Of a stretch of DNA of 64,000 bases, positions 13,670 through 62,176 are shown one piece after another. Position 1 is the first letter of the stretch, and the number at the start of each line of letters is the position of its first letter. The position numbers and the translations under genes were made by a program. Location of the stretch: the NCBI RefSeq assembly GCF_004803405.1, contig NZ_SSXI01000227.1:21403-85402 (forward strand), written 5' to 3'. Source of the stretch: Nocardioides sp. Lineage in GTDB: Bacteria > Actinomycetota > Actinomycetes > Propionibacteriales > Nocardioidaceae. Under the pieces are notes generated by a model. That model did not search any database. It worked only from the letters and a program-made list of their open reading frames with translations, and was not told where the DNA came from.

Positions 13670-13745
13670 GGGGCCTTGGCGCAATTGGTAGCGCACCTGC
13701 TTTGCAAGCAGGGGGTTGCGAGTTCGAGTCTCGTAGGCTCCACCA
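13670..13745 (+). tRNA. tRNA-Ala (TGC anticodon), integration target
   Basis: This is a 76-base tRNA including an encoded CCA. The acceptor GGGGCCT pairs with AGGCTCC (one G-T), the anticodon arm CCTGCTTTGCAAGCAGG carries TGC, and the T-arm is TGCGAGTTCGAGTCTCGTA. Its 3' end from base 13707 onward, plus the terminator, is duplicated at 52326. It is therefore the probable att site of the island to its right. The tRNA itself is intact. Confidence 0.97.
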
Positions 13746-13837
13746 GCAAAACCCCAGGTCAGCCTGGGGTTTTGTTCTTTTCTTGAGCGTTGCGATCGAC
13801 TTCGAGATCGGCGTCTAGGGGGACTGGTGGGGGAAGG
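13707..13837. repeat. Left attachment-type direct repeat (attL)
   Basis: This is the left copy of a 131-bp direct repeat; the right copy is at 52326-52456. Bases 13707-13761 (the tRNA-Ala 3' part and the first arm of the terminator) match 52326-52380 exactly. The rest matches without gaps, with about eight substitutions by my reading. A tRNA 3' end plus terminator is a classic target of tyrosine-recombinase elements. Confidence 0.9.
13748..13781 (+). terminator. Rho-independent terminator of tRNA-Ala
   Basis: AAAACCCCAGG (13748-13758) and CCTGGGGTTTT (13763-13773) form an 11-bp perfect stem with loop TCAG, followed by GTTCTTTT. It lies directly after the tRNA CCA and is included in the duplicated att segment. 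Confidence 0.92.
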
Positions 13838-52325: not shown

Positions 52326-52456
52326 AGCAGGGGGTTGCGAGTTCGAGTCTCGTAGGCTCCACCAGCAAAACCCCAGGTCACCCTGGGGTTTTGTTCTTTT
52401 CTGGAGTGTTCCGGTCGACTTCGAGGTTGGCCTCTAGGGGGACTGGTGGGGGAAGG
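52326..52456. repeat. Right attachment-type direct repeat (attR) with tRNA-Ala 3' end and terminator
   Basis: This is the second copy of the 131-bp repeat. Bases 52326-52380 equal 13707-13761; the remaining 76 bases differ at about eight sites. It holds only the 3' half of tRNA-Ala (from the anticodon stem on) with CCA, and a terminator hairpin (AAAACCCCAGG 52367-52377, CCTGGGGTTTT 52382-52392). It is not a functional tRNA. Confidence 0.9.
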
Positions 52457-52645: not shown

Positions 52646-55600
52646 GTGACGGAACACCCGCTCCTGTTGCCCGGGCTCCACGAGCATCTCGTGACCAATG
52701 GGACGTTGGCCGCCCTCGATGCTGGGTGCGAGCTTCGGGCAGAGTTCGCGAAAGTCGACCCAGCTGACCAATCGCATGTGCTGGCACGACACGTGTACGA
52801 GCTCACCCTCCGCGCGCTGGAAGGCCGGACCGATCCCGGCGGGCGGATCCAGCTCCTCAACGAACTGGTCGGCTTACTTGAGGAACCCGCTGCAGTGGTC
52901 GACGTTCCAGCGCGACAGCTACGTCGGATCGCTCTACCGCCCGGTCCCGGCGTGATTGACATCGAATCCGTCAGGCCTAAGACGCCCCTCTCTGACGCGG
53001 CGCTACTGACGAACAATGTCGGCGAGCCCAACCTCGCCGCAGAACTTCGTGCGGAGATCGACACTTCCGACGAGGTCGACCTGTTGTGCGCCTTCGTGAA
53101 GTGGCACGGTCTCCGCCTTCTAGAGGACGAGCTCGGACGGCTGCGCCTTCGCCACGCGCCGCTGCGCGTCATCACGACGACCTACATGGGCGCTACCGAG
53201 CGAGCAGCGCTCGATCGCCTCGTGCGAGAACTGGGAGCCGAGGTGCGAATCCAGTACGACGCCGCCCGCACCCGCCTGCACGCCAAGGCCTGGATGTTTC
53301 GCCGTCAGACCCGCTACGACACGGCATACGTGGGTTCCTCCAACCTTTCTCGTGCCGCGCTTCTCGACGGGGTCGAGTGGAACGTCCGCTTGTCGCGGGT
53401 CGCGACCCCGGCGCTATTGGATAAGTTCCGCGGCACCTTCGACACCTACTGGAACGACGCCAGCTTTGAGGTTTACGACCCGGATCTCGATCGGGACCGG
53501 TTGGACGATGCGCTCGCCGAAGCTTCGGGACGCCGCCAGCACGACCGAGTGACGATCAGTCTGTCCGGGCTCGAGGTCAGACCGTTCGTCTACCAGCAGC
53601 ACATGCTGGATGAACTGGCCGTCGAGCGCGATGTCCACGACCGTCATCGCAACCTGGTCGTCGCTGCAACCGGGACGGGCAAAACGGTGGTCGCTGCTCT
53701 TGACTACCGGAGACTGTGCGGACCCGCCCCCGCTCACCGGCCGCGCCTGCTCTTCGTCGCGCACCGTAAGGAAATCCTCGAGCAGTCACTACGTACATAT
53801 CAAGAGGTCTTAGCGGACCCCACGTTCGGTGAGCTGTACGTAGCTGGCGCGCGCCCGGAGCGCTGGGACCATGTCTTCGCCAGCGTTCAGTCCCTGCAGT
53901 CGTACGGCGTCACGAACATTCCTGCAGACACCTACGACGTGGTGGTCATCGACGAGTTCCACCACGCCCAGGCGCCGACCTATCGACGGCTTATCGATCA
54001 CCTGACCCCTCGTGAACTGCTTGGCCTCACCGCGACTCCGGAGCGCGCCGACGGCGTCGACGTCCGCGCCGAGTTCTTCGACGGGCGCACTGCCACTGAG
54101 TTGCGGTTGTGGGACGCCCTGGGCAAGGACTTGCTCTGTCCGTTCCACTACTTCGCTATCGCGGACGGCACCGATCTACGCCGCATCAGCTGGAGCCGTG
54201 GTCGGTACGACGAGAACGAGTTGTCGCACGTCTACACGGGCAACCAGGCGCGGGCGGAGATCGTGCTCAGGCAACTGCGCGACAAGATCATCAATCCCGG
54301 ATCGATGCGTGCCCTCGGCTTCTGCGTCAGCGTGGCCCATGCTCGCTTCATGGCCAAGACGTTCAGCGCTGCCGGCATCCCCGCCCTGGCGGTCAGCGGG
54401 GACACACCCTCGGCCGAACGCCAACGCGCGCTCGACGATCTCAAGTCGCGCCGAGTCAACGTTCTCTTTGCCGCCGACCTGTTCAACGAAGGCCTCGACC
54501 TGCCCGATGTCGACACAGTGTTGTTCTTGCGTCCCACGGAGAGCGCCACGGTCTTCTTGCAGCAGCTCGGTCGCGGACTTCGCCGCACCCCCGACAAGGC
54601 CGTTCTGACCGTCCTCGACTTCGTCGGACACCAACGCCAGGAGTTTCGCTTCGACAAGAAGCTGCGCGCGCTTACCGGCCAGACTCGACGAGGCCTGGAA
54701 CGCGAGATCGAACGAGGGTTTCCGTTCCTACCGTCCGGCTGCCAGATCGTCATGGATCAGCGAGCGCAGTCGTTGATCCTCGAGAACCTGCGCACCCAGG
54801 TTGCGAACAGCTGGAAGTCTATGACTGCGGAGCTGCGCTCCTACGGCGACCTCGACCTCGCGGACTTCGTACATGAGTCCGGAGTCGAGTTGCCTGACAT
54901 TCTGCGACGCGGTCAGCGCTCCTGGACCGAGCTCCGCCGAGACGCGGGGCTTCCGACGCCCGTGGGTACGCCTCGCGAAAATGAAATACTCAAGCGAGTC
55001 CGCGCCTTCGCCCACGTTGACGACGAGCTACGAGCGGCCGGCTACCGCCAACTGCTGAGCTCAGGCACCCCATACGCCGATCTCACCCAGGTTGAACAGC
55101 GGTTGGCGCGGATGCTTTTCTTTTCCGCGTTCCCTAATGCCAACGGGTTCTCAACGTACGACGATGGCCTCGCCGCTATCCGCACCGAGCAGGCCGCCGC
55201 CGCCGAACTCGGAGCAGTCATCGATCTAGTGTTTGACGAGACCCGTCATGGTGCGGTGTCGTTGACCGGATCCTTGGCCGATGTGCCGCTTCGCGTCCAC
55301 GCCTCGTATCAGCGCGAAGAGATCCTTGCGGCCCTCGACTATGCCAACCTCCAGCGCAAACCGACCAGCATGATGCAAGGCGTCGCCTACTGCGAGCCGC
55401 TCAACGTGGACGCATTCTTCGTCACCTTGAAGAAGTCCGAGGCCGACTACTCCCCCACGACGATGTACCGCGACTACCCGATCAGCCCAACCCTCTTTCA
55501 TTGGGAATCGCAGAACGCCACCTCGGTCGCCTCACCCACCGGGCAGCGTTACCTCAGCGGCTCAAGCACGGTACTTCTCTTCTGCCGGATCGAGCACAAG

Positions 55601-55747
55601 GGCGAGTACGACACTGAGCCATATGTGTTTCTTGGGCCCGCCTCCTATGCCAGTCATGTGGGCGAGCGCCCCATCGCCATCACCTGGGAACTGCAGCACG
55701 CCATGCCGTCGACCTTCTTCGCGCGCGCCACCTTGGCCGGATCTTGA
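52646..55747 (+). CDS. PLD-nuclease / SF2 helicase / DUF3427 fusion protein
   Basis: This is a 1033-residue protein. A phospholipase-D-type domain (about 115-290) has the HKD-like RLHAKAWMF near 210 and YVGSSNLSRAAL near 228. An SF2 helicase core follows: Walker A AATGTGKTVVA near 341, VVVIDEFHHA (DEAH variant) near 432, GLTATPERADG near 460, and QLGRGLRRTPDKA (motif VI) near 640. The C-terminus (about 790-1030) fits DUF3427, with YCEPLNVDAFFVTLKKSE. Such proteins are common in restriction/defence loci, where the PLD domain may cut DNA. The GTG start has only a weak GAGAG upstream. Confidence 0.88.
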   Translation: MTEHPLLLPGLHEHLVTNGTLAALDAGCELRAEFAKVDPADQSHVLARHVYELTLRALEGRTDPGGRIQLLNELVGLLEEPAAVVDVPARQLRRIALPPGPGVIDIESVRPKTPLSDAALLTNNVGEPNLAAELRAEIDTSDEVDLLCAFVKWHGLRLLEDELGRLRLRHAPLRVITTTYMGATERAALDRLVRELGAEVRIQYDAARTRLHAKAWMFRRQTRYDTAYVGSSNLSRAALLDGVEWNVRLSRVATPALLDKFRGTFDTYWNDASFEVYDPDLDRDRLDDALAEASGRRQHDRVTISLSGLEVRPFVYQQHMLDELAVERDVHDRHRNLVVAATGTGKTVVAALDYRRLCGPAPAHRPRLLFVAHRKEILEQSLRTYQEVLADPTFGELYVAGARPERWDHVFASVQSLQSYGVTNIPADTYDVVVIDEFHHAQAPTYRRLIDHLTPRELLGLTATPERADGVDVRAEFFDGRTATELRLWDALGKDLLCPFHYFAIADGTDLRRISWSRGRYDENELSHVYTGNQARAEIVLRQLRDKIINPGSMRALGFCVSVAHARFMAKTFSAAGIPALAVSGDTPSAERQRALDDLKSRRVNVLFAADLFNEGLDLPDVDTVLFLRPTESATVFLQQLGRGLRRTPDKAVLTVLDFVGHQRQEFRFDKKLRALTGQTRRGLEREIERGFPFLPSGCQIVMDQRAQSLILENLRTQVANSWKSMTAELRSYGDLDLADFVHESGVELPDILRRGQRSWTELRRDAGLPTPVGTPRENEILKRVRAFAHVDDELRAAGYRQLLSSGTPYADLTQVEQRLARMLFFSAFPNANGFSTYDDGLAAIRTEQAAAAELGAVIDLVFDETRHGAVSLTGSLADVPLRVHASYQREEILAALDYANLQRKPTSMMQGVAYCEPLNVDAFFVTLKKSEADYSPTTMYRDYPISPTLFHWESQNATSVASPTGQRYLSGSSTVLLFCRIEHKGEYDTEPYVFLGPASYASHVGERPIAITWELQHAMPSTFFARATLAGS

Positions 55748-55815
55748 TCAAGCTCGGCACATGAAGGATCAGGCCAGGTCCGACGATGAAGAGCATCGCG
55801 AACTAGGCTCCGCTC

Positions 55816-56136
55816 ATGTCGAAACCAGCAGTGCGAGACGCTCTGGAGCGCTTCGTCGACGAGCGTGACTGGGCTCAGTTCCACAGTCCGGCCAATCTCG
55901 CAAAGAGCATCGTCATCGAAGCCGCCGAGCTCGTTGAGTGCTTCCAGTGGAGCGATGAAGCCGACTTGGACCGTGTGCGCGACGAGCTCGCTGACGTCCT
56001 TACCTACTGCCACCTGCTCGCAGCCCGCCTGGACGTCGACCCCGAGCAGATAGTTCTCGATAAGCTCAAGCGAACCGACGCAAAGTACCCCGTCGACCGA
56101 TCTCGGGGACGGAGCACGAAGTATGACCAGCTTTGA
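55816..56136 (+). CDS. MazG-like nucleotide pyrophosphohydrolase
   Basis: This 106-residue all-alpha NTP pyrophosphatase has KSIVIEAAELVECFQW (ExxE metal motif, near 30-45) and RVRDELADVLTYCHLLA (ExxD motif, near 55-70). It ends with LDKLKRTDAKYP. It resembles RS21-C6/dCTP pyrophosphatase-like proteins. Its 3' end overlaps the next start by 14 bases, so the two are coupled. In a defence setting it could drain nucleotides or destroy a modified or signal nucleotide; that is inference. Confidence 0.87.
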   Translation: MSKPAVRDALERFVDERDWAQFHSPANLAKSIVIEAAELVECFQWSDEADLDRVRDELADVLTYCHLLAARLDVDPEQIVLDKLKRTDAKYPVDRSRGRSTKYDQL

Positions 56137-57835
56137 GATCGAGGAGTTCGCGTTCGACGCCCGCGGCCTCGCAGCGTGGGCAGTCGGAGATCCCCGCTTT
56201 CGCAACTGGCCCGTTGTCTACCTGCTGGACAACCCGGACGAGATCTACGTCGGCGAGTCGCTGAACACCGTCGCCCGACTGCGGCAGCACCTTGACTCCC
56301 CCTCCAAGCAGCGACTCGTCGCAGCGCGCGTCATCGTCGACGAGACGTTCAATAAGTCGGTCTGCCTCGACCTCGAGTCCTTTCTGATTCGCCTCTTCGC
56401 AGGCGACGGCAAATTCCAGGTTCTAAACCGAAACGACGGCATCACCGACGCCGACTACTACCGGCGCGCGAGCTACCAAGAATCCTTCGACGCGATCTTC
56501 CAGGCTCTGCGCGAGCGCGGCGCGTTCACACGTCCTATACGCGAGATCGAGAACACCGACCTCTTCAAGCTCTCACCCTTCAAAGCCCTCTCTCCTGATC
56601 AGGCCATCGCTGTCGAAGACATCCTCAGCGGGTTGTTCGAGGACATCAACGCGAAACGTCAGAGCCGCATCGTGATTCAAGGAGATCCGGGGACCGGCAA
56701 AACCGTCGTCGCCGTGTACCTGATGAAGCTGCTTCAGGACATCAAGACAGCGGACCTCACCGAGCCCGCTGACAGCGACTCGATCCTGTCCGAGTTCTTC
56801 GTCGAGGGCTACCCCGAACTGCTTGAAGGCTTCCGTATCGGACTGGTCGTGCCGCAGCAGTCTCTCCGCAAGTCAATCGAGAAGGTCTTCCGAAAAACCC
56901 CCGGGCTCGATCCCGCCTTGGTCGTCACGCCCTTCGACGTCGGCGAAGATCCCGAGCGCTTTGACCTGCTGATCGTCGACGAGACACATCGTCTGAACCA
57001 GCGATCGAGCCAGGCTTCTGGCCAGAAGAACACCCAGTTCCGCACGATCAATGAGCGTCTCTTCGGCCAAGACGACATGGCCAAGACACAGCTCGATTGG
57101 ATCATCGCGAACAGCGATCACCAGATCTTTTTGTTTGACTCGGCCCAGAGCGTCCGACCCCACGACGTCAGCGAGCACAGCCTGAACGGGCTCCTCGGCC
57201 AGGTCGACGACCAGCACCGCCGCTACCGCCTAGCGACGCAGATGCGAGTTCGGGCCGGCTCCGACTACGTCGGTTACGTGCGTCGGGTCCTATCGGCAAA
57301 TCCTCCGGAGCCCGAAGCCTTCGACGGTTACGACCTGCGCATGTTCGACGACCTCGCCGAAATGCACCGAACGATCCGAGGACGCGACGCCGAACACGGA
57401 CTCGCACGCCTTGTCGCCGGCTACGCATGGCCCTGGCTGAGCCGAAGGAACGCGGCAGCGTACGACATCGTGCTCGACGGCGTCGAGCTGCGTTGGAACA
57501 AGACCGATGTCGACTGGATCAACTCCGCTGGCTCCATCAATGAAGTCGGGTCCATTCACACAGTCCAGGGCTACGACCTGAACTACGCCGGGGTGATCAT
57601 CGGCCGCGACCTCTGCTTCGATCCCACCAAGCAGCGACTCGTCTTCGACCGGGCTAGCTACTTCGATGCCAAAGGGAAGGAGAACAACCGGGCCCGGGGG
57701 ATCACGTACGGCGACGATGACATCCTGCGGTTCGTTCGCAACATCTATTCAGTGCTGCTCACCCGCGGGATGCTCGGTACCTACATCTATGTGTGCGACG
57801 ACGAGCTGCGCAGATACCTTCGCCAGTTCTTCTAG
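56123..57835 (+). CDS. GIY-YIG nuclease-like domain fused to DUF2075 ATPase/helicase
   Basis: This is a 570-residue fusion. A GIY-YIG-like domain (about 28-110) has VVYLLDNPDEIYVGES, then RLRQHL and ESFLIRLF, though the first motif is VYL rather than GIY. A DUF2075 P-loop domain follows: Walker A GDPGTGKTVVAVYL near 188, LLIVDETHRLNQ near 282, LFDSAQSV near 338, and TVQGYDLNYAGVIIG (helicase motif V-VI-like) near 480. The gene starts inside the MazG frame, so stoichiometric expression is likely. It is convergent with the NERD gene. Confidence 0.85.
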   Translation: MTSFEIEEFAFDARGLAAWAVGDPRFRNWPVVYLLDNPDEIYVGESLNTVARLRQHLDSPSKQRLVAARVIVDETFNKSVCLDLESFLIRLFAGDGKFQVLNRNDGITDADYYRRASYQESFDAIFQALRERGAFTRPIREIENTDLFKLSPFKALSPDQAIAVEDILSGLFEDINAKRQSRIVIQGDPGTGKTVVAVYLMKLLQDIKTADLTEPADSDSILSEFFVEGYPELLEGFRIGLVVPQQSLRKSIEKVFRKTPGLDPALVVTPFDVGEDPERFDLLIVDETHRLNQRSSQASGQKNTQFRTINERLFGQDDMAKTQLDWIIANSDHQIFLFDSAQSVRPHDVSEHSLNGLLGQVDDQHRRYRLATQMRVRAGSDYVGYVRRVLSANPPEPEAFDGYDLRMFDDLAEMHRTIRGRDAEHGLARLVAGYAWPWLSRRNAAAYDIVLDGVELRWNKTDVDWINSAGSINEVGSIHTVQGYDLNYAGVIIGRDLCFDPTKQRLVFDRASYFDAKGKENNRARGITYGDDDILRFVRNIYSVLLTRGMLGTYIYVCDDELRRYLRQFF

Positions 57836-57847
57836 GCACCCGCATGA

Positions 57848-58702
57848 TCAATGGGCCGGTGGCAGTGCACCACCGAGCAATCGGTGGAGGGCGCGCACCT
57901 GCCCGGTGCTCCACGGGCCATCCGCGCTCAGCTTCGCGTAGAGCTTCTTGGGCCACAGGACGTCGACATCACGAGTGACGAACGAGCCGCCAATGAGCGG
58001 CCAGTCGGCCTCGACGAAGCAGAGAACGCCGTGCACTACTCGGTCGTCTTCCACGATGCCGCGCACGACCTCAACCTGCTTCCGCACGCTGTCGACGACC
58101 CTGGTGCAGTCGCGCCGACCGACTAGGAGCTTCTCGACTCGTGGGCGCAGGACGCCCCCTTCCACCTTGAGGGTCGGGCGGCCCTTGTATCGCTTCGCGT
58201 CGACCACGTAGACGCCTGACCTAGCCACGACGATGTGGTCGATGTTGGCCCTGCTCCCAGGGATCCGCCGGTCGTGCAGCACGCGTATCGAGTCGGATGC
58301 GTACTCGTTGAGTCGAGCGCCAAGACGCTCTTCTCCGATGGCGCCCGTGTCCCAGGCCGTCGTGGACTGCGGCTCATCGCCAAGGGCAAGGATCAGTCCG
58401 CCCAGCCGGGGATGCTTCACTCGGATTCGCTGCTCCCGCGAAGCTCGGCGGCGCTCGAACTCCCGGCGCGCGGACCCGCCAGGCACGCCAGGCTCGACCT
58501 CGGTCGGGTCCCCCTCGCGCCGGGAAAGCTGAGGCTTTTCGGGTTCGCTCGGCGCCGGAACGCACTCGACACAGCGCACCGTCTTGGTCGACTTCTGGTA
58601 AATCGCGTCCGTTCTTGCGGGCAGATCGACGCCGCATGCCCGACACGTTCCGGCGTACCGCAGGCGCATGTGCTTCTCGTCCGGGACGGGCACCTCGGTC
58701 AT
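57848..58702 (-). CDS. NERD (nuclease-related) domain protein with N-terminal zinc-ribbon-like motif
   Basis: This 284-residue protein has an N-terminal CRACGVDLP...CVEC pair-of-cysteines motif (near 20-48), possibly a zinc ribbon. A charged linker leads to a NERD domain (about 120-230): GAIGEERLGARL, RRIPGSRANIDHIVVARSGVYVVDAKRY, which carries the restriction-enzyme-like Asp...Asp-x-Lys layout. The function is likely nucleic-acid binding or cutting (inference). It opens from ATG 58702; the longer frame lies in the relaxase promoter region. It is convergent with the DUF2075 gene, 12 bases apart. Confidence 0.85.
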   Translation of the reverse strand: MTEVPVPDEKHMRLRYAGTCRACGVDLPARTDAIYQKSTKTVRCVECVPAPSEPEKPQLSRREGDPTEVEPGVPGGSARREFERRRASREQRIRVKHPRLGGLILALGDEPQSTTAWDTGAIGEERLGARLNEYASDSIRVLHDRRIPGSRANIDHIVVARSGVYVVDAKRYKGRPTLKVEGGVLRPRVEKLLVGRRDCTRVVDSVRKQVEVVRGIVEDDRVVHGVLCFVEADWPLIGGSFVTRDVDVLWPKKLYAKLSADGPWSTGQVRALHRLLGGALPPAH

Positions 58703-58919
58703 TCTCGCGACGCTAACCGTCGAGCAACACATTCGTCCCGGCTTTCGGCTTCCCGACAGCGCGCCCCCCGCGCTGACGACGATTGACGAGTTCCAAGACA
58801 GCCCCCGCTCTCGCAGCCGAACAGCCTTCAAACCGAGCGGCACGCGTGCTACGAAGGTTCGTAGAAGGTCCGTCCCCCCGGGGACGGGCCAGCGTCATTT
58901 CAGGGGTCTTTGACGAGAC
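58703..58919. other. Divergent spacer upstream of the relaxase; candidate oriT
   Basis: This is a 217-bp non-coding region between NERD and the MobF relaxase gene. It holds a perfect inverted repeat CCGTCCCC-CC-GGGGACGG (58870-58887). The oriT of MobF systems commonly lies next to the relaxase gene and contains such inverted repeats. No nic consensus was recognised. Confidence 0.4.
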
Positions 58920-61607
58920 GTGACGGGCGGTGACGAGCACATCATGCACGGTGGAGTGAAGTTCTACCGCGGCTCCGCAGCCGCCGCCCGCTCCTACGTC
59001 GAGGCCGACCACTCCCGCGCCGACGACTACTACCTGGCCGAGGGGAGCGGCGTCGCCGAGCACTACGCCGTCGTCGTCAGCGACGACGGTGTCGCCACCG
59101 AACGGCGGCCTGACCTCGACGGCGCGGCGTACGAACATTGGGTCGCCGGGTACGACGTCGCCACCGGTCAGGCGAAGGGACGACTGCGCGACGACGACCA
59201 CGCGCTGCGGTTCGTCGAGGTGGTCGTCAACGGTCCCAAGACCTGGTCGCTCGCGGCTGCGCTCCACCCCGAAGTCGCCGCTGCTTACGAAGCCGCGCAG
59301 GCGCGCGGCGCAGAGGAGATCATCGACTGGGTCGCACAGCACGCGACCACGCGCGTGGGACCGCGCGGTCGACAGGTCCAGGTGCCCGTAGAGAAGATCG
59401 AGGCTGCCGTCGTACGGCACTACACCTCGCGTGCCGGCGACCCGCACCGTCACCTTCACCTCCAGATCAACGCGCGTGTGTTCGCTTCTGGTGCGTGGCG
59501 TGGCCTCCACTCGGTCGGCGTCGTCGACTCCATCGAGGCACTCAACGGCATCGGTCACGCTGCCGTCATGTGCGACCCGGAGTTCCGTGCGGCTCTGGCC
59601 GCCCGGGGGTACACGCTCGACGAGGCTGGCGAGGTCGAGGAGCTCGCGCCGTACGCCGGACGGTTCAGCCAGCGCGCCTCCCAGATCACCCGCAACGTCG
59701 ACCGCTACGAGGCCGAATGGCGAGCGGACCATCCCGGTGAAGAACCGGGGCCGAAGCTGCGGCGCACCTGGGACCGCCGCGCGTGGGCGGACGCGCGCCC
59801 CGACAAGGTCGTCCCTGCCAACGGTGCCCAGCTTGTGGCGCGTTGGAACGACGAGCTGCTCAATCTCGGGTTCCAACCGCCGACCCAGTCGAGACAACTC
59901 GACCCGACCGCCGTCGGCCGGCTCCGGCGGGACGTCGCCGTCGATCTGATGCTCACGCGCTTGGGCTCGAAGCGCTCCGCGTGGAACGCCGCGGACATCC
60001 GAGGAGAAGCGGAGAAGCTGATCGCGTCCGTCGGGGTCATTGTGGATCGAGCCGTTCGAGTGGAGCTCGCCGAGGACCTCACCGCGCGTGCAGTGCGCGA
60101 GTGCCGACCACTGCGCGAACGGACCGACGTACCCGACCACATCCGCAACCTCACCTCCGACCGGGTCCTCGCGATTGAGGCAGAGCTGATTGACAGCCTC
60201 GCCACGCGTTCGATGGGACCGGTCGAGCACGCCCCCCGCGTCCACGGCGCCGGCCACCTCGACATCGCTCAGCGGACGGTCGTCGCCGCCCTGGCCGGCG
60301 AGGCCGGTCTGCTCGTCATCGAAGGCGCAGCCGGCACGGGCAAGACCACCACGCTGGCCGCCGCGCGCGACGTACTCGACGCCCACGACCGCCGACTCGT
60401 CGTCGTCACCCCCACCCTCAAGGCCGCGCAGACAGCCCGGCAACAGGTCGGCACCGACGCGTTCTCTGCGGCGTGGCTCATCCACCAGCACGGGTTCCGG
60501 TGGGACGACGACGGAAACGGGTGGCAGGTCGACGCCAGTCCCGACGCCCGCGCACGGCTGCTGCCCGGCGACGTACTCCTGGTCGACGAGGCCGGCATGC
60601 TTGATCAGGACACGGCCCGCGCGCTGTTCGCGATCGCCGACCGTGCCCACGCGACCGTCGCCCTGCTCGGGGACCGTCACCAGCTGCCCGCCGTCGGCCG
60701 TGGCGGGGTGCTGGACCTCGCCGCGCGGTGGGTGCGGCCCGAGGCGCACCTCGAGCTCGAGTCGGTGCACCGCTTCGCCGACCCGGCGTACGCCGACCTC
60801 AGCCTGCTCATGCGCGGCGGTGAGCGCCCGGGTGAGGTCTTCGACGATCTCGTCGCACGCGGCGAGATCGTCGTCCACGCCAGCAAGGTCGAGCGCGCCG
60901 ACGCAATCGCCGACATCGGCGCAGCCGGTGACGAGCTGATCATCGCTGACACGCGCGAGCTGGTCGGATCCATCAACGCAGCCATCCGCGACCTCCGCCA
61001 CGACACTGGTGCGCGAGTTGGTGAGCGAGATGGTGAGCCTGTCACCCGCCTGGGTGAGCGGATCGGTCTCGGTGATCGCGTCGCAACGCGCCGCAACGAT
61101 CGCGACCTCGGCGTCGCCAACCGCGACGTCTGGACAGTTGCCGGCATCGGCGACGACGGAAGCCTCGTCGTCACCGGCCGCGCCGGTCAACGCGAGCTTC
61201 CCGCCGACTACGTCAACCGACACGTCGAGCTCGCCTTCGCCTCGACCGCGTACGGTGCCCAGGGGGAGACGGTCGACTCCGCCCACCTCGTCGTCGGCGA
61301 GGTCACCGGCGCAGCCGCGGCGTACGTCGGCATGACCCGCGGCCGCCACAACAACGTCGCCCATCTGGTCGCCGACTCGGTCGAGGACGCACGCCAGCAG
61401 TGGATCGACGTCTTCAGCCGCGACCGCGCCGACCTCGGACCCGGCCACGCCGCGACCCGGGTCGACGAGGACATCGACCGCTACGGCACCCAAGCCCCCA
61501 CAGGCGCAGCGCTCCTCCAGGCCGCAGCCCTGGCTGCGAGCCAGCGCGGGACGGAGCCCCCGCCGCCGTACCCGAGCCGTCCGACCAGTCCCGGCATCAG
61601 TCGCTGA
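58920..61607 (+). CDS. MobF (TrwC-type) conjugative relaxase with helicase domain
   Basis: This 895-residue protein nicks oriT and unwinds DNA during conjugation. The relaxase domain (1-290) has Tyr16 and Tyr26 as nicking candidates (GGVKFYRGS, AAARSYVEAD) and the three-His metal motif HRHLHLQINARV near 177. The helicase half has Walker A EGAAGTGKTTTLAA near 468, VDEAGMLDQD near 557, LLGDRHQLPAVGRG near 582 and AYGAQGETVDSAH near 778. The GTG at 58920 or ATG at 58944 can start it. It is shorter than plasmid TrwC at the C-terminus. No type IV secretion gene is in view. Confidence 0.92.
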   Translation: MTGGDEHIMHGGVKFYRGSAAAARSYVEADHSRADDYYLAEGSGVAEHYAVVVSDDGVATERRPDLDGAAYEHWVAGYDVATGQAKGRLRDDDHALRFVEVVVNGPKTWSLAAALHPEVAAAYEAAQARGAEEIIDWVAQHATTRVGPRGRQVQVPVEKIEAAVVRHYTSRAGDPHRHLHLQINARVFASGAWRGLHSVGVVDSIEALNGIGHAAVMCDPEFRAALAARGYTLDEAGEVEELAPYAGRFSQRASQITRNVDRYEAEWRADHPGEEPGPKLRRTWDRRAWADARPDKVVPANGAQLVARWNDELLNLGFQPPTQSRQLDPTAVGRLRRDVAVDLMLTRLGSKRSAWNAADIRGEAEKLIASVGVIVDRAVRVELAEDLTARAVRECRPLRERTDVPDHIRNLTSDRVLAIEAELIDSLATRSMGPVEHAPRVHGAGHLDIAQRTVVAALAGEAGLLVIEGAAGTGKTTTLAAARDVLDAHDRRLVVVTPTLKAAQTARQQVGTDAFSAAWLIHQHGFRWDDDGNGWQVDASPDARARLLPGDVLLVDEAGMLDQDTARALFAIADRAHATVALLGDRHQLPAVGRGGVLDLAARWVRPEAHLELESVHRFADPAYADLSLLMRGGERPGEVFDDLVARGEIVVHASKVERADAIADIGAAGDELIIADTRELVGSINAAIRDLRHDTGARVGERDGEPVTRLGERIGLGDRVATRRNDRDLGVANRDVWTVAGIGDDGSLVVTGRAGQRELPADYVNRHVELAFASTAYGAQGETVDSAHLVVGEVTGAAAAYVGMTRGRHNNVAHLVADSVEDARQQWIDVFSRDRADLGPGHAATRVDEDIDRYGTQAPTGAALLQAAALAASQRGTEPPPPYPSRPTSPGISR

Positions 61608-61752: not shown

Positions 61753-61965
61753 ATGACGATCAAACCGCTGGGCGTCCCCGACGACTGGGACGACAACCAC
61801 ATCCTGCTGTTCGAGGAGTTCTGCGCATTCATCCGTACGCCGCAGCGCACAGTTAGGGAATGGCGCCGACTCAACCGAGGCCCGAAGTGGTGGAGGTTCA
61901 ACGGCAACGGACGGCTCTACACCACCGTCGCCGAACTCCGCCGCTTCCTCGAGGCCGGTGAGTGA
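61753..61965 (+). CDS. Small helix-turn-helix DNA-binding protein (AlpA/excisionase-like)
   Basis: This 70-residue protein has a winged-helix pattern of the MerR/excisionase kind: FEEFCAFIRTPQRTVREWRRLNRGPKWWRFNGNGRLY, then TTVAELRRFLEAGE. GGAGACCG (61743-61750) precedes the ATG. Such proteins regulate or assist excision of integrative elements. The 3' end overlaps the next HTH gene by eight bases. Confidence 0.82.
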   Translation: MTIKPLGVPDDWDDNHILLFEEFCAFIRTPQRTVREWRRLNRGPKWWRFNGNGRLYTTVAELRRFLEAGE

Positions 61966-62176
61966 GATGGCCGCGACCACCGGTCCGGCCGACCAGCGAC
62001 CCCGCTGGCTGAGCATCACCGGCGCCGCGCTTTGGGTGAGCCTCTCCGCCAAGACCATCCGCCGCAAGATCGCCGCCGGCGAGCTGCGCGCCTACCGTTG
62101 CGGCAAGACCATCCGGATCAAGACCGACGACCTCGAGGCCATGATGCGTCCCGTGCCATCGGCAAAGGATTGGTGA
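61958..62176 (+). CDS. Helix-turn-helix excisionase-family protein
   Basis: This 72-residue protein (from GTG 61958; ATG 61967 possible) has RWLSITGAALWVSLSAKTIRRKIAAGELRAYRCGKTIRIKTDDL, the standard HTH_17/excisionase layout: helix-turn-helix, wing with Arg/Lys, final helix. In many actinobacterial integrative elements this gene is followed by a tyrosine integrase; here the next gene is a P63C protein. It may act as recombination directionality factor or as a repressor. Confidence 0.85.
   Translation: MSEMAATTGPADQRPRWLSITGAALWVSLSAKTIRRKIAAGELRAYRCGKTIRIKTDDLEAMMRPVPSAKDW

What the first reader, a model, noticed from the sequence alone, without database searches (positions are those of the whole stretch)
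52646..58702. Candidate defence cassette: PLD-helicase-DUF3427, MazG-like, GIY-YIG-DUF2075, plus NERD
Three co-directional genes combine two nuclease-like domains (PLD and GIY-YIG), two P-loop motors (SF2 and DUF2075) and a nucleotide pyrophosphohydrolase; the last two overlap by 14 bases. A NERD protein is convergent. The set sits right after an att site beside mobilisation genes, a typical defence-island address. I do not recognise it as a named system. One model: the helicase-nuclease senses foreign DNA, and MazG and the DUF2075 protein cause nucleotide depletion or cleavage.
Basis: partly seen in the sequence, partly recalled or inferred. Interest (0 to 1): 0.8.

Follow-up and report, generated by a model that had tools for sequence, protein, structure and literature searches.

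The report
dCTPase–nuclease pair beside methyl-DNA cutter
A probable bacterial anti-virus locus joins a known type of enzyme that cuts chemically marked DNA to an unnamed, almost inseparable gene pair (a nucleotide-destroying enzyme and a helicase-nuclease) that recurs beside restriction systems in many bacteria; the pair's role has not been tested.

Summary
[quoted passage not shown] (2) Genes 2-3 are a conserved pair: a MazG-like protein of the dCTP-pyrophosphatase (DCTPP1/RS21-C6) family and a GIY-YIG + Schlafen-group-3 helicase protein. MazG lies directly upstream in 94 of 96 loci, 84 with the same 14-base overlap; conversely 13 of 13 strong MazG sites in 140 family genomes lie at the helicase gene. 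I found no name for the pair in PADLOC, NCBIfam or eight paper searches. It is patchy and co-locates with restriction genes: 6 of 9 close SauUSI-type copies and 11 of 47 C5-methylase loci lie within 11 kb (expected 0.06 and 0.29). No C5 methylase was found in 16 genomes with the restriction enzyme, against 34 of 64 without. In Bacillota a NUDIX gene flanks 12 of 17 relatives with the modified-base reader, 0 of 13 without. Best reading: restriction of C5-modified cytosine DNA plus dCTP/modified-dCTP hydrolysis. The biochemistry is inferred.

The parts
52646..55747 (+). [quoted passage not shown]
   Evidence: PADLOC mREase_IV PDLC03659 1178.5 bits over residues 108-1025; PLDc_2, ResIII, Helicase_C, DUF3427; solved relative 7clg, E 1.2e-72. 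H212, K214, N233, Walker A and DExH present; residues opposite SauUSI's 5mC-pocket positions are F925, V926, D943, W953 (weak part of the alignment; letters)
55816..56136 (+). MazG-like pyrophosphohydrolase of the DCTPP1/RS21-C6 family, 106 aa
   Evidence: PF12643 1.1e-17; RS21-C6 / dCTP pyrophosphatase 1 structures E about 2e-17; E35, E38, E57, D60, W45, Y64 in 95 of 95 relatives, W19 and H23 in 94 of 95
56123..57835 (+). GIY-YIG nuclease domain + Schlafen-group-3 helicase, 570 aa; overlaps the MazG gene by 14 bases
   Evidence: PF09848 6.7e-67; Y33, Y42, G44, R52, H56, E85, N102 and G187/G190/G192/K193/T194 in 96 of 96; model pLDDT 78, best PDB fold hit human SLFN11
57848..58843 (-). NERD-domain protein, convergent; recurrent neighbour of the pair
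   Evidence: PF08378 4.6e-14; relatives in 10 of 96 pair loci, 0 of 40 control regions (p 0.027)
58920..61607 (+). MobF/TrwC relaxase-helicase (mobilisation context, not part of the module)
   Evidence: TrwC 5.7e-49, MobF NF041492 above cut-off; relatives in 6 of 96 pair loci, 0 of 40 control regions
61958..62176 (+). excisionase-like HTH (mobile context)
   Evidence: TIGR01764 41.3 bits, cut-off 28.8
52326..52456 (+). duplicated 3' end of tRNA-Ala(TGC) plus flank (att copy); partner copy at 13707-13837

Best explanation
A two-arm defence locus. Arm 1: the SauUSI-type enzyme reads C5-modified cytosine in incoming DNA with its DUF3427 (SRA-like in SauUSI) domain, translocates with its ATPase and cuts with its PLD domain. 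Arm 2: the translationally overlapped MazG + GIY-YIG/Schlafen-helicase pair, probably made in fixed ratio and possibly as a complex. MazG hydrolyses dCTP or C5-modified dCTP (5-methyl/5-hydroxymethyl), denying replicating invaders their cytosine precursor, while the helicase-nuclease unwinds and cuts invader nucleic acid. Shown here: domains, conserved candidate catalytic residues, near-obligate pairing, conserved overlap, co-location with restriction genes, and absence of C5-methylase matches from the sampled genomes with the restriction enzyme. Inferred: substrates, complex formation, defence activity, and any functional link between the arms. My sub-estimates: gene 1 is a C5-cytosine-dependent restriction enzyme 0.85; the pair is one functional unit 0.95; the pair serves defence 0.75; its MazG acts on dCTP or C5-modified dCTP 0.6; the two arms cooperate here 0.35.
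For: Gene 1: with SauUSI mechanism from passages of PMC7913695. Pairing 94 of 96 and overlap 84 of 94; converse 13 of 13 strong MazG sites. MazG = DCTPP1 family, conserved residues; DCTPP1 hydrolyses dCTP and 5-halogenated/5-methyl/5-formyl dCTP (PMC7162842 passages). Co-location: close restriction-enzyme copies 6 of 9, C5-methylase loci 11 of 47. C5-methylase match (E <= 1e-20) in 0 of 16 genomes with the restriction enzyme (E <= 1e-60) against 34 of 64 others, p 3.7e-5. NUDIX beside 12 of 17 DUF3427-bearing relatives against 0 of 13 without; solved relatives of two such NUDIX proteins include MutT2 and a CTP pyrophosphohydrolase that I take to be Orf135. PMC10742078 (passages) names Orf135, RS21-C6 and DCTPP1 as 5-methyl-dCTP hydrolases and MutT2 as active on it, though MutT2 also digests dCTP. 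A type II CRISPR-Cas9 locus lies upstream of the pair in L008. Patchiness: 23 of 245 and 75 of 299 genomes.
Against: I found no test of the pair's activity. A close SauUSI-type gene was not found near the pair in 90 of 96 loci, and order and strand vary where both occur, so the arms may be independent. The pair also sits near C5 methylases, which argues against a link to type IV restriction alone. If MazG removed modified dCTP from a phage it would remove the mark that arm 1 needs. Some loci show non-defence neighbours: NrdR and ribonucleotide reductase upstream in L006, and nothing I recognised by eye in L007, L009, L011. In more distant plasmid helicases MazG was beside only 2 of 9. The control-region comparison is weak: clusters with no defence link also gave 0 of 40. 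DCTPP1-family membership does not fix the substrate. The statistics ignore phylogeny. Outside the Bacillota sample NUDIX was beside only 5 of 15 SauUSI-type genes.
Confidence: 0.5

Rival explanations
1. Self-protection: MazG (and, in other loci, the NUDIX enzyme) removes 5-methyl/5-hydroxymethyl-dCTP salvaged from degraded DNA so that the host never builds modified cytosine into its own chromosome and is not cut by its own type IV enzyme. The pool enzyme would act like an antitoxin for the restriction enzyme.
For: NUDIX tracks the DUF3427 reader, 12 of 17 against 0 of 13; MazG and/or NUDIX lies in the same gene cluster as a SauUSI-type gene in the window, L047, L056, L073, L127, L171 and L173, and a NUDIX gene lies directly upstream of a SauUSI-like stretch, itself in pieces, in a Staphylococcus plasmid record; no C5-methylase match in 16 genomes with the restriction enzyme. 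A figure legend in PMC7641849 notes MutT homologs adjacent to SauUSI homologs (passage).
Against: MazG is mostly found without the restriction enzyme; whether 5-methyl-dCTP arises by salvage is disputed (PMC7162842 passage); no toxicity data.
Confidence: 0.25
2. Abortive dCTP depletion: infection sensed by the GIY-YIG/Schlafen helicase switches on MazG, which drains dCTP and stops phage replication.
For: Near-obligate pairing with conserved overlap; DCTPP1-family MazG. Defence by dCTP/dGTP depletion is established for other enzymes (recalled, no call).
Against: No toxin-like regulation was looked for or seen; MazG enzymes are usually constitutive house-cleaners (recalled).
Confidence: 0.25
3. 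The pair is a genome-maintenance (damage repair plus pool sanitation) module carried by mobile islands, not a defence system; its neighbours reflect shared island addresses.
For: NrdR and class II ribonucleotide reductase directly upstream in L006; other loci with metabolic neighbours by eye; MazG and helicase families have housekeeping members (recalled).
Against: Patchy presence (23 of 245 in the family); co-location with restriction genes.
Confidence: 0.15
4. Genes 1-3 are simply neighbours in a defence island with no functional link between gene 1 and the pair.
For: Only 6 of 96 pair loci have a close gene-1 relative near by; order and strand vary; gene 1 is 86-87% identical but MazG/helicase only 62-68% between the window and L056/L171.
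Against: Co-location of close copies far above chance, 6 of 9; NUDIX-REase-MazG-helicase run in a Lactiplantibacillus plasmid.
Confidence: 0.4

Closest known systems
[quoted passage not shown] PADLOC mREase_IV)
   Same: PLD nuclease - SF2 ATPase - DUF3427 order; conserved HxK, Walker and DExH; residues opposite the pocket positions conserved or similar
   Different: C-terminal half barely alignable by phmmer, so sequence context and modification preference may differ; here followed by MazG and helicase genes rather than flanked by NUDIX
DCTPP1 / RS21-C6 (dCTP pyrophosphatase 1)
   Same: Same MazG subfamily by sequence, ExxE-ExxD and W/H/Y residues
   Different: Bacterial, shorter, translationally overlapped with a GIY-YIG/Schlafen helicase; activity unknown
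Human SLFN11 / Schlafen group 3 helicase (PF09848, ex DUF2075)
   Same: Helicase family by HMM; best PDB fold hit, E 2.5e-9
   Different: N-terminal GIY-YIG domain in place of the Schlafen RNase domain (recalled); TM-score only 0.35
MutT homologs beside SauUSI homologs in Streptococcus (PMC7641849, legend seen)
   Same: Nucleotide pyrophosphohydrolase beside a SauUSI homolog
   Different: MutT/NUDIX, not MazG; no Schlafen helicase mentioned in the passage seen
DefensePredictor's predicted MazG defence domain (PMC13092281, passage)
   Same: MazG flagged as an untested defence domain
   Different: Partner genes not given in the passage seen; figure not held, so it could be the same pair

Membership tests
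SauUSI-type type IV restriction enzyme | PLD nuclease + SF2 ATPase + DUF3427/SRA target-recognition domain in one chain | tested here: met
SauUSI-type type IV restriction enzyme | Intact HxK/N/E, Walker A and DExH residues | tested here: met
   invariant in 6 aligned proteins, letters
SauUSI-type type IV restriction enzyme | 5mC-pocket residues (Phe841, Ile842, Asp858, Trp868 of SauUSI) | tested here: inconclusive
   stand opposite F925, V926, D943, W953, but this part of the alignment is weak; model of the region of low confidence, pLDDT 57
SauUSI-type type IV restriction enzyme | ATP-dependent cleavage of 5mC/5hmC DNA | not testable with these tools
   indirect support: no C5-methylase match in 16 of 16 genomes with the enzyme
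DCTPP1/RS21-C6 MazG | Sequence similarity and ExxE-ExxD metal site with W/H/Y pocket residues | tested here: met
   roles of the DCTPP1 residues recalled
DCTPP1/RS21-C6 MazG | Hydrolysis of dCTP and C5-modified dCTP | not testable with these tools
   no assay possible
GIY-YIG nuclease | Conserved Tyr, Tyr/Gly, Arg, His, Glu, Asn | tested here: met
   96 of 96; Pfam weak in window protein, 0.012, 4.2e-6 in L173; residue roles recalled
Schlafen group 3 helicase | PF09848 above cut-off | tested here: met
   226.7 bits, cut-off 24; fold
Named anti-phage system in PADLOC 2.0 for genes 2-3 | Model match over most of the protein | tested here: not met
   gene 2 none; gene 3 weak partial matches only, best 4.1e-7 over 51 residues
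BREX, DISARM | Strong core-gene match among the window proteins scanned | tested here: not met
   8 proteins scanned; only weak partial helicase-domain matches such as BrxHI 1.1e-5 and DrmD 0.009

The most novel reading that the evidence does not exclude
Modification-dependent (type IV) restriction enzymes are partnered by dedicated nucleotide-pool enzymes, MazG/DCTPP1-type or NUDIX/Orf135-type, that destroy C5-modified dCTP. The pool enzyme keeps the host's own DNA free of the mark its restriction enzyme attacks, or denies it to phages; the MazG form is coupled by gene overlap to a new GIY-YIG/Schlafen helicase-nuclease.
Probability: 0.3. Interest if true: 0.85.

Novelty: new variant of a known kind. 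Interest (0 to 1): 0.62.

Why it matters
If true, restriction of modified DNA is not a single-enzyme affair: it comes with nucleotide-pool policing, which would explain how cells avoid self-restriction by type IV enzymes or how they block phages that swap cytosine for C5-modified cytosine. It would also define a widespread, unnamed bacterial Schlafen-helicase defence module. The idea is directly testable with two small enzymes and a phage panel.

Tried and rejected
Three-gene operon as the conserved unit: rejected, since a close gene-1 relative was near only 6 of 96 pair loci. Phage origin: the A2 profile found no relative in viral contigs; 4 phage-collection records matched gene 3, and the best of them (MT836409, L171) also encodes an alpha-amylase-family protein, so it looks like a bacterial fragment. 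tRNA-bounded island carrying the genes: rejected, they lie outside the repeat-bounded segment. Fold of the gene-1 C-terminus by AlphaFold: pLDDT 57, so I ran no fold search on it.

Results against simple readings: L115 has a C5-methylase relative and a member of the McrB-type ATPase cluster in one locus. That cluster has 4 members; only L045 was shown to carry an MrcB_N domain beside a McrBC-family protein, and L114 showed only AAA domains. In one search, clusters without a defence link (for example an RNase_T/BRCT exonuclease, 5 of 96, and a DUF2510/G5 cluster, 6 of 96) were also 0 of 40 in controls, so those zeros prove little. Family L100-like (4 loci; 3 members plus the L102 one scanned) got no Pfam hit. 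L056's gene-1 relative matches from residue 441 on only and looks broken.

Rows left out: L050 (G081, 137 bits) was not among the 96; there the MazG match is on the opposite strand. The 96 are not all hits: searches list more sites than the 80 fetched (L051-L130). In one search, 52 raw C5-methylase matches were merged to 47 loci; it assumes 3.6 Mb genomes and independence. The gene-1 copies of the window, L056 and L171 are 86-87% identical and L072/L073 85%, so independent events are fewer than copies. In the NUDIX test the stretch beside the gene was under 450 bases on one side in L203, L209, L215 and L218 (of 13) and in L210 and L212 (of 17), so some NUDIX genes may have been missed in both groups.
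Full report
WHAT IS THERE. The four ORFs are as described: 52646-55747, 55816-56136, 56123-57835 (all +) and 57848-58843 (-). The MazG stop and the next start overlap by exactly 14 bases. Pfam gives PLDc_2, ResIII, Helicase_C and DUF3427 in gene 1, MazG-like in gene 2, SLFN-g3_helicase (the renamed DUF2075, recalled) with a weak GIY-YIG in gene 3, and NERD in gene 4. A MobF relaxase, an excisionase-like HTH and a P63C protein follow. GC is 0.60-0.64 in genes 1-3 against 0.70 in the first 13.7 kb of the window, consistent with acquisition. The host is in the family of Marmoricola endophyticus, i.e. Nocardioidaceae: the Marmoricola locus L005 has the same match coordinates as genome G925, listed as 'same family'.

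THE ATT SITE. The 3' end of tRNA-Ala(TGC) plus flank, 13707-13837, recurs with some mismatches at 52326-52456; a 35-base probe finds no other copy in the genome at up to 3 mismatches. Nine of the ten genes I scanned there and just before it, eight of them inside the bounded stretch, gave Pfam hits, and those inside are metabolic or transport-like. The defence genes begin 190 bases to the right of the second copy, outside that stretch. The contig ends 1.9 kb past the window and I saw no integrase there on reading its ORFs.

GENE 1 IS A KNOWN KIND. PADLOC mREase_IV matches at 1178.5 bits over residues 108-1025, and the solved protein 7clg (named 'Putative helicase'; from its length, 953, I take it to be SauUSI) matches at 1.2e-72. 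SauUSI has a PLD nuclease, an SF2 ATPase and an SRA-fold reader of 5mC/5hmC (PMC7913695, passages). In the weak second part of the alignment, SauUSI pocket residues Phe841, Ile842, Asp858 and Trp868 stand opposite F925, V926, D943 and W953 of the window protein (letters checked). The AlphaFold model of this part is poor (pLDDT 57), so the SRA fold is not independently shown. That is what a 5mC-dependent enzyme should look like.

GENES 2-3 ARE A NEAR-OBLIGATE PAIR. A 96-locus set (window; L005-L011; L042-L049; L051-L130) was examined. A MazG relative lies directly upstream on the same strand in 94 of 96, and 84 of the 94 have the same overlap. Of the two others, L083 has a more distant MazG in the same slot and in L111 none was found. 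Conversely, in 140 genomes of the family, the 13 MazG sites at E <= 1e-30 are all at helicase sites listed; two weaker paralogs are not. Relatives reach Bacillota and Saccharibacteria, as metagenome-assembled genomes. Carriage is patchy: 23 of 245 genomes of the family, 75 of 299 of family f37, 22 of 248 of the order of G230, 2 of 299 Bacillota including the centre genome itself. The host holds a second, different copy beside a relative of the same relaxase (L042). The pairing thins out with distance: of 9 plasmid loci of helicases with 25-32% identity (L172-L176, L185-L188), MazG was found beside 2.

CHEMISTRY SUGGESTED. MazG is closest among solved structures to RS21-C6/dCTP pyrophosphatase 1 (E about 2e-17). 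E35, E38, W45, E57, D60 and Y64 are in 95 of 95, W19 and H23 in 94 of 95; their equivalence to DCTPP1 residues is from the alignment, their roles are recalled. [quoted passage not shown] In gene 3 the GIY-YIG candidate residues and Walker A are in 96 of 96. Its model (pLDDT 78) has human SLFN11 as best PDB hit, E 2.5e-9 but TM only 0.35.

NEIGHBOURS. Genome-wide counts are the fair test: of 9 close gene-1 copies in 80 genomes 6 lie within 11 kb of the pair (expected 0.055), of 47 C5-methylase loci 11 (expected 0.29), of 7 more distant mREase_IV copies 0. A second comparison is weaker: within about 9 kb, relatives of NERD (10 of 96), C5 methylase (10), gene 1 (7), MobF relaxase (6), an McrB-type ATPase cluster (5) and HSDR_N (5) recur, against 0 of 40 control regions for each. 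The clusters were chosen because they recur near the pair, some clusters with no defence link were also 0 of 40, and 10 of 96 against 0 of 40 is only p 0.027. Arrangements of gene 1 differ: upstream (window, L056, L171), downstream (L073), after a NUDIX gene (L047), divergent with a NUDIX gene (L127), 7 kb away (L072). A mobilisable Lactiplantibacillus plasmid has NUDIX - gene 1 type - MazG - helicase in a row. L045 has McrBC and McrB genes one gene away; L008 has Cas9, Cas1, Cas2 and Csn2 upstream; L006 has NrdR and a class II ribonucleotide reductase instead.

THE NUDIX CLUE. Of 74 PLD-helicase places in 299 Bacillota genomes, 30 of the 31 best-scoring were given as loci: 17 have DUF3427 and 13 do not (L215, one of the 13, has lost its C-terminus). 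A NUDIX gene lies within 80 bases of 12 of the 17 and of 0 of the 13 (p 7.2e-5, or 1.2e-4 without L215). The two groups are also two sequence clades, so this is a contrast of clades, not of the domain alone. NUDIX is annotated beside relatives in Hymenobacter, Latilactobacillus and Staphylococcus records and found in a viral contig (L221). Outside the sample it is beside 5 of 15 (yes L173, L182, L183, L219, L221; no L171, L177-L181, L184, L220, L222, L223). Solved relatives of two of these NUDIX proteins include MutT2 and a CTP pyrophosphohydrolase, 2rrk, that I take to be Orf135; the top hit of both is 5x1x, a MutT. PMC10742078 (passages) names Orf135, RS21-C6 and DCTPP1 as 5-methyl-dCTP hydrolases, and MutT2 as active on it and on dCTP. 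PMC7641849 mentions MutT homologs adjacent to SauUSI homologs in a legend (passage), so the adjacency is in print; I saw no explanation of it in the passages read.

MECHANISM. I commit to a two-arm locus: gene 1 cuts C5-modified DNA; the pair hydrolyses dCTP or C5-modified dCTP and unwinds/cuts invader nucleic acid. The common thread of several neighbours (5mC-dependent enzymes, C5 methylases, pool enzymes whose relatives act on 5-methyl-dCTP) is cytosine C5. hm5C enters phage DNA through an hmdCTP pool (PMC3874153, passage), so a pool enzyme is a sensible weapon or safeguard. Whether it starves the phage, protects the host from its own enzyme, or depletes dCTP outright cannot be decided here.

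WHAT IS IN PRINT. Paper searches (open-licence PMC only; titles and abstract starts seen, passages of ten papers read) gave no paper I could identify as describing the MazG + GIY-YIG/Schlafen pair. DefensePredictor lists MazG as a predicted, untested defence domain (PMC13092281, passage); its figure is not held, so overlap with this pair cannot be excluded.

Noticed in passing
13746-52325: 38.6 kb segment with metabolic genes (P450, luciferase-like monooxygenase, MFS, MaoC by Pfam; CaiB- and acyl-CoA-dehydrogenase-like ORFs by eye) bounded by tRNA-Ala and a 131-base imperfect repeat of its 3' end and flank: looks like an integrated metabolic island.
   Followed up: partly
G000 contig C196, L042:9673-11707: Second MazG-helicase pair in the same genome, beside a relaxase of the same family on the opposite strand.
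   Followed up: partly
L049:6057-8877: C5 methylase followed by an HATPase/Hypoth_ymh protein upstream of the pair: possible restriction-modification-like operon.
   Followed up: no
L100:10679-11653, L122:13177-14181, L124:11760-12662, L102:12962-14047: Unnamed family of about 300-360 aa near the pair in four loci, without Pfam match; in L102 and L124 a NUDIX match lies beside it.
   Followed up: partly
L115: One pair locus holds relatives of a C5 methylase, of the McrB-type ATPase cluster and of NERD together, against a simple exclusion of 5mC and type IV enzymes.
   Followed up: no
L187:684-6728: NUDIX gene near a DUF262 protein, a restriction endonuclease and a distant GIY-YIG/Schlafen helicase on a Lactobacillus plasmid: NUDIX may also accompany GmrSD-type enzymes.
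   Followed up: no
L056 and L171: Gene 1 is 86-87% identical to the window's while MazG and helicase are 62-68%: the two parts may exchange independently.
   Followed up: partly
L180:3614-8066: A NERD gene also lies directly upstream of a SauUSI-type gene on a Pseudoalteromonas plasmid, so NERD may track the restriction enzyme as well as the pair.
   Followed up: partly
L008:65-5262: A Cas9-Cas1-Cas2-Csn2 locus lies upstream of the MazG-helicase pair in a Bacillota metagenome genome.
   Followed up: partly
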